Assembly: GCA_021371795.1 (NCBI GenBank)
Contig: JAJFVK010000025.1
Span: forward strand, 1-62,002
Reading direction: 5' to 3'
DNA: 62,002 nt
Origin: Planctomycetaceae bacterium
GTDB taxonomy: Bacteria > Planctomycetota > Phycisphaerae > Sedimentisphaerales > UBA12454
A program made the translations under genes and the position numbers. Shown one piece after another: positions 27,724-37,956 of the stretch; positions within the stretch are counted from its first letter, which is position 1, and the number at the start of each line of letters is the position of its first letter. Below the pieces are notes generated by a model. It was not told where the DNA came from. It searched no databases and saw only the letters and a program-made list of their open reading frames with translations.

Positions 27724-27990
27724 TTAAATCTTATCTATCTCCTCTTGTATCTCTTTTACTTTTTGTGGCACACCCATTTTGCTGAAATATTCTATTGCCA
27801 GAGACCAACATTCCCTATCTTTATTATAATCCTTACGTTTTTCATATATTGAACCTAAGTTGTCATACCTGATTGCCAAACCTTCACATGATCCAAGTTT
27901 TTTGTCTATTTCCAATGCCTTGAGATACATTTCTTCTGCTTTATCGAAATCTTTTTTATCTCTAAATACTACGCCTATATTGTTTGATTG
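27724..27990 (-). pseudogene. C-terminal fragment of a TPR protein
   Basis: The minus strand reads QSNNIGVVFRDKKDFDKAEE, then MYLKALEIDKKLGSCEGLAI and YDNLGSIYEKRKDYNKDREC, and ends IQEEIDKI. These are two to three tetratricopeptide repeats with the usual 34-residue spacing. The upstream part is missing: at about 27990 the sequence turns into an IS110-type transposase start in a different frame. It therefore looks like a TPR gene cut by a rearranged insertion element. Confidence 0.65.
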
Positions 27991-28058
27991 GCAAAAGAAA
28001 TTGCGATTTTATGCTCTTTTTTGTGGGTGTCCAATGCGACATAAGTTATATTGTTCAT
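27972..28058 (-). pseudogene. IS110-family transposase, N-terminal fragment
   Basis: From the ATG at 28056-28058 the minus strand reads TYVALDTHKKEHKIAI after MNNI, then runs out of homology near 27999 where the TPR fragment begins. The Asp of ALDTHK matches the first catalytic Asp of the DEDD (RuvC-like) domain of IS110-family recombinases. Only about 20 residues remain, so the element cannot move by itself. The start codon directly abuts the structured region at 28059-28189. Confidence 0.7.
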
Positions 28059-28189
28059 CGACCGGTTCCTTTCATTGTATGCGGCTCTGTCCCGATTTGG
28101 GATAATCCACGATTGCGGCGGCTACGTACCGCCTTGTCGCAATATCTGTTATCAGGTATTGACGACTTTTACAACCACGGAGCCGGTCG
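28059..28189 (-). ncRNA. Candidate IS110 bridge RNA region (degenerate element)
   Basis: Just upstream of the IS110-type start the sequence folds strongly. Outer arms CGACCGGTTCC (28059-28069) and GGAGCCGGTCG (28179-28189) pair over 11 positions with one G-U. Inside is a bulged hairpin (ATTGC 28112-28116 with GCAAT 28139-28143; GGCGG 28117-28121 with CCGCC 28129-28133) and a small hairpin (TCCC 28090-28093, GGGA 28099-28102). In the IS110 group the non-coding end upstream of the recombinase encodes the bridge RNA, so position and fold fit. Exact RNA ends and guide loops cannot be set without an intact relative. Confidence 0.45.
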
Positions 28190-28286
28190 TTCCATATATT
28201 CTAAACGACGTGGATTCCCCCAGAGGAGTTTCCGCAGTTGCTCCAACCGTTTTCAAGGGAATGACAAACGTTGTCGTTCCGACAAC

Positions 28287-28329
28287 GGCTAAACGAACCC
28301 CGTCAAAGTGTTGACGGGGCTAAACGACG
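28287..28329. repeat. Dispersed hairpin element, copy A
   Basis: CCCCGTCAA (28298-28306), loop AGTG, TTGACGGGG (28311-28319), flanked by two direct copies of GGCTAAACGA (28287-28296, 28318-28327). It has the same layout as 37421-37468 (CCCTGCCAT, loop AGTG, ATGGCAGGG) and 35398-35452, with compensating changes in the stem. Confidence 0.65.
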
Positions 28330-28554
28330 GTTTGTTATCCGGAAGGGAGTTTTAGACCCTTTTAAATCTTAAATAAGAAATTTTAAATTTTGTCCTATAT
28401 AAACTGCGGTTTTTGCCGCGAGGATTGCGATTTTAAAAAATTTTCGCCTTTTTTGAATTTTGTTCGGTTTTTGTTAGGGTCTTTGATGTCTGTTTGACGA
28501 TAGATGTTTTGACAAGAAAAACAAAAAGTATCAAAGAAGAAACGGATGTGAAAA
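28330..28554. promoter_or_regulatory. Upstream region of the 28555/lexA pair
   Basis: AT-rich. It contains the small hairpin AAGGG/CCCTT (28345-28363), a GCGG/CCGC hairpin near 28405, and two similar boxes TGTTTGAC (28491-28498) and TGTTTTGAC (28505-28513), about 50 bases before the ATG at 28555. The boxes are a candidate for a promoter element or LexA site, but this is a guess. Confidence 0.3.
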
Positions 28555-29049
28555 ATGGAAAGCAGAAACGGATTTTTGAATGATGGAAACGCCCCTCTTT
28601 GTCGATTCGGCCCCGGCGGTGATTACGTAAAAGATTGGCCGGCCGGAACTTACAAAGCACAACAAAAACCGATTGGTTCGGTTTTAAACACAATCGCAAA
28701 GATGCTTGATACTGTAATTGACCAAGAGCTGATGCAAAATTCGACGATTGCGAAGATTCATTCAGCGATACAGAACGCTCAATTACCAGATTTAACGGAG
28801 TACGAAGTTGAGTACGAAAAATCAAACAATGCTAACGCCGCGTCAGTTTCAGGTGTTAAAGTTAGTCAACAGTTCACGGCAGAACCGATGTTATTCGATA
28901 ACTCTGCAGGAGCTTTCGGACATTCTGGGAACAAGCAGAACAACGGCATTCGAGCACATCGCCGGCCTAAAAGAAAAAGGGCTTCTTTCGGCCGAGTCTG
29001 GCAAGGCTCGCTCTTTGACGCTCACCAGCAAAGCGTTAAAGTTGCTTAA
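28555..29049 (+). CDS. Unknown protein overlapping lexA in another frame
   Basis: A frame of 164 residues from an ATG at 28555. Its first ~85 residues (FGPGGDYVKDWPAGTYKAQQ, SVLNTIAKMLDTVIDQELMQ, NAQLPDLTEYEVEYE) lie before lexA and read like a real protein. From 28808 on it overlaps lexA in the +1 frame for about 240 bases. That part is low-complexity and basic (RAHRRPKRKRAS) and may simply be open because lexA constrains the DNA. I do not recognise a family. The GGAG site of lexA lies inside this gene, so the two are probably translationally coupled. The true C-terminus needs proteomic or comparative data. Confidence 0.5.
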   Translation: MESRNGFLNDGNAPLCRFGPGGDYVKDWPAGTYKAQQKPIGSVLNTIAKMLDTVIDQELMQNSTIAKIHSAIQNAQLPDLTEYEVEYEKSNNANAASVSGVKVSQQFTAEPMLFDNSAGAFGHSGNKQNNGIRAHRRPKRKRASFGRVWQGSLFDAHQQSVKVA

Positions 29050-29458
29050 AGAAGCGGCTCTCGAAGAGTCGAGCAATTCTGAATCGTCGGACGGTATCGC
29101 TCTGCTTGGCAGGATAGCGGCCGGTGCGCCGATTGAAGCGATTGAAAACGCAGAGCGGATTTCGATACAATCGGCGTTTGGAAACGATGAAGAAACTTTT
29201 GCGCTGAAGGTTCAGGGCGACAGTATGATCGGCGACGGTATAAATGACGGCGATTATGTAATTTGCAAAAAAACACAGGATGCGGCTAATGGAAAAATCG
29301 TCGCGGCAATCGTTGATAACGAAAACGCAACTGTAAAACGATTTTACAAAGAACAAAACCGGATTCGTCTTGAGCCGTCGAATCCGGCCTATAAGCCGAT
29401 ATACACGCAGAACTGTAATATCGCAGGCGTTGTAGTGGGATTAATGCGAAAACTATAA
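28808..29458 (+). CDS. lexA: LexA repressor (SOS regulator, S24 family)
   Basis: A 216-residue repressor. Residues about 8-75 are a winged HTH (LTPRQFQVLKLV, ITLQELSDILGTSRTTAFEH). The autocleavage site is Ala105-Gly106 in GRIAAGAPIEA. The C-terminal protease has Ser139 in GDSMIGDGI and Lys177 in NATVKRFYK. RecA-stimulated self-cleavage would derepress SOS genes. A TTG start at 28808 is chosen because GGAG stands 7 bases upstream; the ATG at 28829 is the alternative and would remove 7 residues. It overlaps the unknown gene at 28555 and is 17 bases before the YbjQ gene. Confidence 0.88.
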   Translation: MSTKNQTMLTPRQFQVLKLVNSSRQNRCYSITLQELSDILGTSRTTAFEHIAGLKEKGLLSAESGKARSLTLTSKALKLLKEAALEESSNSESSDGIALLGRIAAGAPIEAIENAERISIQSAFGNDEETFALKVQGDSMIGDGINDGDYVICKKTQDAANGKIVAAIVDNENATVKRFYKEQNRIRLEPSNPAYKPIYTQNCNIAGVVVGLMRKL

Positions 29459-37288: not shown

Positions 37289-37638
37289 AGTTTGACCCTT
37301 TCAAAAAACAATTAACAAAACAGGATTGTAATATAATTATCAAAATTATCAAGTTAAAGATTTGGCAATACTTTGGACAAACCGCACCTGCGGCGAGTAA
37401 AGCCCCCACCCTATAAAACTGGCTTTACGAACCCTGCCATAGTGATGGCAGGGCTGATATGGAACGACCTTTGTCAAATCAATTTTGTAATATATTTTTC
37501 TTTCATTTTTTTTAATCTTTTTTTTATTAACAAACAAGGTACAGGCTGCTTCGACGATGAATCAGTCTGATATTCGTGGATTATCCTTTGTTAAAGGACA
37601 GAGCCGACAGTGATATTCTTCGTCCGGAATCGTGCCTT
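37289..37638. other. Intergenic region with hairpin element
   Basis: About 350 bases before the KDPG aldolase gene. It contains GTAAAGCC (37397-37404) pairing with GGCTTTAC (37421-37428), the dispersed hairpin copy B, and an AT-rich stretch. On the minus strand a short frame of 33 codons with an AGGCAGG site (MLAGLTILEGTIPDEEYHCR, near 37565-37665) has one CxxC and may be the tail of a deleted gene. No convincing gene. Confidence 0.4.
37421..37468. repeat. Dispersed hairpin element, copy B
   Basis: GGCTTTACGAA, then CCCTGCCAT (37432-37440), loop AGTG (37441-37444), ATGGCAGGG (37445-37453) and CTGATATGGAACGAC. It shares loop and flanks with copy A at 28287-28329 although the stem bases differ. 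Confidence 0.65.
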
Positions 37639-37956
37639 CTAAAATCGTGAGTCCGGCAAGCATAAAACCTGCCTGTCAACATAGCTCGCATCGATACATT
37701 TTTTCGTAAGACTGAAATGAGTATTAATCGGCGTGGGCACATAAACGACATCGGCTTTGCCTTTGATGCCGGCCAAGAGTTTATCGGTGTCATCGTAAAC
37801 GGGAATGCCTTTTTCCAAACATGCTGCCCTGCCGGGAGAGTGCCTTGAAGGATTGCTGCTGACGGCGACAAGGCTGATTGCATCGGGAATTTCCCATATC
37901 CATTTAATCAGATTAAATGCGTAGCCCCCTGCGCCAATCATCGCCAGTTTGACCAT
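37639..37956 (-). pseudogene. Truncated Gfo/Idh/MocA oxidoreductase
   Basis: The N-terminal 90 residues are a normal NAD-binding Rossmann domain (MVKLAMIGAGGYAFNLIKWI, VVYVPTPINTHFSLTKKCID). The frame then changes into unrelated residues (SYVDRQVLCLPDSRF) and stops at 105, where family members run beyond 300 and would next show an EKP motif. The break falls right after KKCIDA. A deletion that joined the gene to another sequence is the simplest explanation. The start site (AAAGGA) is still good. It lies upstream of the KDPG aldolase and KDG kinase genes and may once have supplied their substrate. Confidence 0.65.

What the first reader, a model, noticed from the sequence alone, without database searches (positions are those of the whole stretch)
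27972..28189. IS110-family relic with a well-folded candidate bridge RNA directly before its start codon
An IS110-type N-terminus (YVALDTHKKEHKIAI) is preceded at once by DNA with an 11-pair outer stem (28059-28069 with 28179-28189), a 10-pair bulged hairpin and a small hairpin. IS110 elements such as IS621 encode a bridge RNA in this position, whose loops specify target and donor DNA. A relic this clear lets one look for an intact, possibly active relative with its own guide RNA in this lineage.
Basis: partly seen in the sequence, partly recalled or inferred. Interest (0 to 1): 0.65.

Follow-up and report, generated by a model that had tools for sequence, protein, structure and literature searches.

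The report
Split RNA-guided transposon relic with structured leader

Summary
In detail: on the minus strand, 28189-28059 folds well (z -4.3) and is followed at once by ATG and 27 codons of an IS110-type recombinase. The bridge-RNA reading does not hold. In intact relatives the target guide lies downstream of the gene: it matches each element's own right flank (mean 6.40 against 4.24 nt in other elements, 0 of 10000 permutations), while the upstream RNA shows no such match. A model of the downstream RNA finds it in this window at 37540-37716 (E 2.7e-30), beside a right end inserted at a REP-like palindrome. So the window carries a left-end and a right-end relic, 9.3 kb apart, of IS1111-type elements that insert at REP-like repeats. 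The upstream RNA is still real: 34 leaders found, 149 both-sided pair changes against 35.5 expected, no Rfam match. It buries the ribosome-binding site, and its central hairpin is the reverse complement of the bridge RNA's donor loop (signature on the antisense strand in 31 of 34 leaders, on the sense strand in 0 of 34). Most likely it controls recombinase translation; the mirrored donor loop is unexplained.

The parts
28201..28340 (-). REP-like repeat modules forming the left flank; they end in GTCGTTTAG (28209-28201) at the insertion point
   Evidence: dispersed copies in 12 of 13 family genomes; empty-site-like copy at G000:C4
28201..28202 (-). AG core dinucleotide at the left end
   Evidence: AG is at both ends of the 7 copies in G156
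28185..28197 (-). left subterminal inverted repeat ATATGGAACGACC
   Evidence: its complement GGTCGTTCCATAT is at the right end
28059..28189 (-). structured 5' leader RNA (the finding)
   Evidence: fold z -4.27; covariance model R1, 138 bits; pair changes
28179..28189 (-). outer stem, 5' arm (overlaps the inverted repeat)
   Evidence: pairs with 28069-28059
28059..28069 (-). outer stem, 3' arm; holds the GGA of the putative ribosome-binding site AAAGGA (28072-28067)
28136..28166 (-). leader hairpin 1
   Evidence: 8 modelled pairs, all with both-sided changes in relatives
28117..28133 (-). leader hairpin 2
   Evidence: 6 modelled pairs, all with both-sided changes in relatives
28075..28112 (-). 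central hairpin, reverse complement of the donor loop of the bridge RNA
27975..28058 (-). recombinase start: 27 codons and a stop; the rest is deleted
   Evidence: 68% identity over 22 residues to G008; homology to intact recombinases ends about 27981-27990
27724..27980 (-). 3' fragment of a tetratricopeptide-repeat gene joined to the truncated recombinase
   Evidence: weak matches to TPR protein families, all below their cut-offs
37540..37686 (-). bridge RNA of a second, right-end fragment; the first target guide is lost at about 37683
   Evidence: model R2 108 bits, E 2.7e-30
37639..37646 (-). left target guide GATTTTAG; compare the left flank GTTTAG at 28206-28201
37553..37624 (-). donor-binding loop; 37573-37567 ATATCAG equals right end plus core; 37606-37596 and 37586-37574 are complementary to the leader
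37456..37477 (-). right end: TTGACA box (37477-37472) and right inverted repeat (37469-37457)
37432..37455 (-). AG core and REP-like palindrome forming the right flank
37684..37956 (-). truncated oxidoreductase gene joined to the bridge RNA
   Evidence: long-frame homologues in 5 of 7 genus genomes; the window's genome holds only the fragment and G010 none

Best explanation
The feature is the left end of a dead IS110-family element of IS1111 architecture. The element inserted by an AG core at the foot of a REP-like palindrome. SHOWN: the RNA between the left inverted repeat and the start codon is a conserved, covarying structure; target choice maps to a different RNA downstream of the gene, a truncated copy of which survives at 37.5 kb; the central hairpin of the leader is the reverse complement of that RNA's donor loop. 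INFERRED: in the circular intermediate the joined ends make a promoter (TTGACA in the right end, GAAAAT-like box in the left end, about 17 bp apart) that starts a transcript at the foot of the leader; the closed leader hides the ribosome-binding site in its outer stem and so keeps recombinase translation low until something opens it. What opens it is not known; candidates are an antisense RNA, as in ISPpu9, or the bridge RNA itself.
For: Leader conserved before the gene in 33 loci besides the window; 92.9% of cells paired against at most 42.1% when slid, 149 both-sided changes against 35.5 shuffled. The leader's right-flank match is not distinguishable from chance (713 of 10000 permutations) while the downstream RNA's is 0 of 10000. 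The downstream RNA has two internal-loop hairpins with covariation. TTGACA or TTGACG lies in 22 of 23 right ends tested and TAGACA in the other. In leader hairpins 1 and 2 G.U outnumbers A.C 19 to 2, favouring the sense strand (sums). ISPpu9, another REP-targeting IS110 element with an AG repeat, has an inhibitory 5' UTR that likely hides the ribosome-binding site, supported by mutation (PMC8450116; abstract and passages).
Against: No expression data exist here; the control function rests on the fold and on analogy. In the outer stem A.C mismatches outnumber G.U (20 to 12 by my sums), which does not favour the sense strand there. The recombinase (362-390 aa in relatives) is longer than the 330-350 aa given for IS1111. 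The alignment behind the pair counts was fitted to the model, and one of its 35 rows was the antisense match in the window.
Confidence: 0.75

Rival explanations
1. The leader is the bridge RNA: its loops pair with target and donor DNA, as in IS621.
For: Position between left end and start codon fits the IS110 group; real fold and covariation. In an unanchored test the leader matched own flanks somewhat above chance in three of four comparisons (126, 165 and 210 of 5000).
Against: In the anchored test the leader is near chance for both flanks (713 and 2809 of 10000); in the unanchored one the key comparison (right flank, complement) gave 1651 of 5000, and the left flanks there included a few bases of the element itself. 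A downstream RNA with clear guide matches exists in the same elements. The shortest leaders are about 75-90 nt with a single inner hairpin.
Confidence: 0.03
2. The leader is a docking site for the bridge RNA: the donor loop pairs with the central hairpin of the recombinase mRNA, giving feedback between guide and enzyme.
For: 31 of 34 leaders carry the donor-loop signature on the antisense strand; in the window the two RNAs have complementary runs of 11 and 13 nt; duplex energy is slightly better for own pairs (207 of 5000), and local alignment gave 21 of 10000, neither corrected for kinship or base content.
Against: No element-specific match: the stem 4-mers agree in own pairs in 3 of 19, against 25% in other pairs, and the right block gives 570 of 5000.
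Confidence: 0.2
3. The left end encodes an antisense RNA that mimics the donor loop (like Asr9 of ISPpu9 in position) and binds or titrates the recombinase; the mRNA leader is only its complement.
For: Same orientation as the bridge RNA on the antisense strand, with conserved internal-loop bases and an independently varying stem.
Against: G.U over A.C in hairpins 1 and 2 favours the sense strand; donor guides are not kept in the mirror copy (my reading of the sequences); no convincing antisense promoter in front of the leader was found in the window.
Confidence: 0.2
4. The mirrored donor loop is only a fossil: the left end arose as an inverted copy of the right end with part of the bridge RNA, a step in moving that RNA from one end to the other.
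For: Both the inverted repeats and the hairpins are inverted copies of each other; Durrant et al. propose that the bridge RNA moved between ends (PMC11208160, passages).
Against: Conservation and compensatory change across phyla imply present selection on the leader, though this need not concern the mirror itself.
Confidence: 0.25

Closest known systems
IS1111 group (ISEc11 and relatives; Siddiquee et al. 2024, PMC11187229, sections 6 and 12 and passages read)
   Same: Subterminal inverted repeats with 7 bp and 3 bp outside them if the repeat is counted as ATGGAACGACC; downstream guide RNA; complement of the top strand first
   Different: Recombinase about 370 aa, and a long conserved structured leader upstream as well
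ISPpu9 of Pseudomonas putida (PMC8450116, abstract and passages read)
   Same: IS110 family, inserts in REP elements with an AG repeat, RNA downstream of tnp, structured 5' UTR likely to hide the ribosome-binding site
   Different: The paper says the downstream Ssr9 is partly complementary to the antisense Asr9; here the downstream RNA's donor loop resembles the antisense strand of the leader. The ISPpu9 sequence was not compared here
IS621 and the bridge RNA (Durrant et al. 2024, PMC11208160, passages read)
   Same: Two-loop bridge RNA with target and donor guides, DEDD recombinase
   Different: IS621 carries its bridge RNA in the left end before the gene; this group carries it in the right end

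Membership tests
IS110 family | DEDD_Tnp_IS110 and Transposase_20 domains | tested here: met
   in 4 of 4 intact relatives scanned and NF033542 in 2 of 2; the relic's 27 residues alone match no IS110 model in either library
IS1111 group | subterminal inverted repeats of 7-17 bp | tested here: met
   exact 11-16 bp inverted repeats in the 23 elements carried forward of 32 examined; both halves present in the window
IS1111 group | bridge or seek RNA downstream of the gene | tested here: met
   remnant in the window at 37540-37716
IS1111 group | transposase of 330-350 aa | tested here: not met
   362-390 aa in full-length relatives; the published description calls this a typical range, not an absolute rule
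IS1111 group | position of the recombinase in a tree with IS1111 and IS110 reference elements | not tested
   no reference sequences were fetched; the claim here is IS1111-type architecture
IS110 group with upstream bridge RNA (IS621, ISEc21) | upstream RNA carries target guides | tested here: not met
   leader near chance in the anchored test
Bridge RNA (the leader itself) | internal loops complementary to target DNA | tested here: not met
ISPpu9-type control | antisense RNA to the leader and an effect on translation | not testable with these tools
   needs expression data

The most novel reading that the evidence does not exclude
RNA-guided recombinases of this group carry a second, antisense-oriented copy of the donor loop of their bridge RNA inside the leader of their own mRNA, so that guide RNA, enzyme production and the joined ends of the circle are wired into one control circuit.
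Probability: 0.3. Interest if true: 0.8.

Novelty: new variant of a known kind. Interest (0 to 1): 0.52.

Why it matters
IS110-family elements are the source of programmable bridge-RNA recombinases. Their guide RNAs are well studied; their control is much less so. A covarying leader that buries the ribosome-binding site and mirrors the donor loop gives a testable idea of how guide and enzyme could be balanced. It is also a caution: a good fold before the start codon of an IS110-family gene is not enough to call a bridge RNA.

Tried and rejected
Leader as guide RNA: rejected by the flank-matching tests. Rfam: no match at gathering score for six relatives; nothing above gathering near the leader or near the second RNA in the window. 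Strict, element-specific pairing between leader and own bridge RNA: not supported. One element broken in two as against two truncated copies: not settled. In G012 and G011 the oxidoreductase start and the aldolase are about 7.5 and 8.1 kb apart, against about 0.4 kb here, which suggests a deletion beside the right-end fragment and favours two copies; the halves share no overlap to compare. Viral contigs: no relative. Right donor guide: pairing with the left end looked plausible in some elements only and was not scored.

Rows dropped: L107; L107, L086 and L114 in the anchored test (20 of 23 elements kept); L099, L114, L118, L109 and L107 in the duplex test (19 of 24 kept, window included); the window's antisense match; L099 (no motif found). 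The L086 and L114 junctions were joined wrongly because no AG follows their right end; only their TTGACA box counts. In one search the automatic motif picker misread some donor loops (for instance L088, L100, L107, L110), so its counts are rough.

Full report
Observation. On the minus strand the window reads, from 28209 down: GTCGTTTAG, the left inverted repeat ATATGGAACGACC (28197-28185), a folded stretch closed by 28189-28179 with 28069-28059, then ATG at 28058-28056 and 27 codons of an IS110-type N-terminus, then TAG and a tetratricopeptide-gene fragment. The fold has z -4.27. The outer stem has 10 Watson-Crick pairs and a C.A mismatch. Homology to intact recombinases stops near 27984. No DEDD_Tnp_IS110 domain is found in the window's genome.

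Relatives. A DNA search of the 461-base stretch gave one true relative in the genus (G008, 75% over 28203-28017); it has an in-frame stop and is apparently interrupted by another insertion sequence (by eye). A protein search found 7 copies in one complete genome of the order, G156. Four are identical over 1616 bases, two more differ by one gapped base, and the seventh by 6 mismatches and 2 gaps. A scan of genome contigs gave 80 loci from Planctomycetota to Bacillota and Proteobacteria; the G008 contig appears there, by identical length and match, as Planctomycetes bacterium GWF2_42_9.

Anatomy of intact elements. Comparing the G156 copies fixes the ends: flank-AG-AAAATATGGAACGACC ... GGTCGTTCCATATC-AG-flank. 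In 23 elements carried forward of 32 examined, a left repeat of 11-16 bp has its exact complement 276-518 bases after the stop codon. The gene codes for about 370 residues. There are two non-coding regions: the leader, and a downstream region of 287-530 bases.

Where the guide is. The downstream region holds a conserved RNA with two internal-loop hairpins (19 sequences; 103 both-sided changes against 34.5 shuffled, 91.8% of cells paired). For 20 elements, the run of bases complementary to core plus right flank averages 6.40 in the element's own downstream region and 4.24 in those of others, 0 of 10000 permutations as good; 14 of 20 reach 6 or more. The left guide gives 4.60 against 3.95, 41 of 10000. 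The leader gives 3.15 against 2.86 (713 of 10000) and 3.05 against 2.93 (2809 of 10000). An unanchored version on 22 elements agrees for the right flank: downstream 0 of 5000, leader 1651 of 5000. For the left flank in sense the downstream RNA gives 0 of 5000; the leader gives 126 of 5000 there, and 165 and 210 of 5000 in the two comparisons of the wrong strand. These weak leader signals are told here as results against my reading; the flanks in that version include a few bases of the element itself. The order of guides (complement of the right flank first) fits the IS1111 group. So the leader is not the guide.

The second relic. The downstream-RNA model, searched on 81 sources, hit the window itself at 37540-37716, minus strand, 108 bits, E 2.7e-30. 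It is the only hit in 13 genomes of the family. The RNA is cut at about 37683, where an oxidoreductase gene fragment joins it; beyond it lie TTGACA, the right inverted repeat and, across the AG core, a REP-like palindrome. Its left guide GATTTTAG agrees with TTTAG of the flank at 28201. The relative L092 sits in a TTTTAG/CCCC site, and its right guide GCGACGGGGCT is the complement of AGCCCCGTC as found in the REP-like repeats of the window's genome (sequences; repeats). On the minus strand the order is right end, 9.3 kb, left end. Two truncated copies are more likely than one split copy, because relatives G011 and G012 have about 7.5-8.1 kb between oxidoreductase and aldolase where the window has 0.4 kb, but this is not settled.

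The leader as an RNA. A model from 11 leaders, searched on the window and 74 loci, found 34 leaders at or just upstream of the gene, 24 of them not used to build it. On the fitted alignment of 35 rows (one of them the antisense match in the window) 30 of 35 pairs show both-sided changes, 149 cells against 35.5 shuffled. G.U against A.C is 19 to 2 in hairpins 1 and 2 but 12 to 20 in the outer stem (my sums). Of the 33 loci with a leader, 30 also show the downstream RNA; in the other three (L091, L103, L121) the contig ends too early. In the order 31 of 161 genomes have the leader; in the genus 2 of 7.

The mirror. A two-block profile of the donor loop (GCTCTG ... TAATCCACGA) scored on leaders gives a mean of 22.3 on the antisense strand, 3.8 on the sense strand, 5.0 for random stretches and 23.2 for the bridge RNAs themselves; 31 of 34 antisense leaders and 0 of 34 sense leaders exceed the 99% background. 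The downstream-RNA model itself hit the antisense strand of three leaders (L108, window, L105) with E 0.019, 0.027 and 0.097. In the window the leader and the bridge RNA have complementary runs of 11 and 13 bases. Element-specific agreement is not seen (3 of 19 against 25%; 570 of 5000), so pairing of the two RNAs is possible but not shown to be under selection.

How it probably works. Joining the ends gives TTGACA - 17 bp - GAAAAT, GACAAT, GAATAT or a similar box in most elements, so the circle should start a transcript at the foot of the leader. The closed leader hides GGA of the ribosome-binding site. By analogy with ISPpu9 (PMC8450116, abstract and passages) this should keep recombinase low. 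These steps are inferred. Siddiquee et al. note that 26 of over 350 ISFinder elements have two longer non-coding regions (PMC11187229, section 6), so the two-region plan as such is known. I saw no description of a conserved leader of this kind or of a mirrored donor loop in the listings of searches; of their hits I read parts of three papers only, so this is a weak statement about print.

Noticed in passing
window 28201-28340 (-), and loci L002-L037: Modular REP-like repeats, GTTTAG followed by a short palindrome and sometimes chained, dispersed in nearly all genomes of the family; they resemble REP elements with a GTAG-like foot (likeness recalled).
   Followed up: partly
L068, L079, L083, L084 (G156): Copies inserted at GT-AG before palindromes such as GGCAAGCGTCCCCGCTTGCC: REP-like targets in a second, distant lineage of the order.
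   Followed up: partly
window 37684-37956 (-): Oxidoreductase gene cut after about 90 codons by a deletion that reaches into the bridge RNA; 7-8 kb lying there in G011 and G012 are missing at this place.
   Followed up: partly
G109 contig ends: Many leader fragments (model positions 38-124) at contig ends, suggesting repeated copies that broke the assembly.
   Followed up: no
L115, L128, L131, L158, L160 and others: Downstream bridge RNA present with no leader match: the leader seems limited to a subset of the group.
   Followed up: no
window 28808-29458 (+): ORF that looks LexA-like by eye, next to the left-end relic; not scanned.
   Followed up: no
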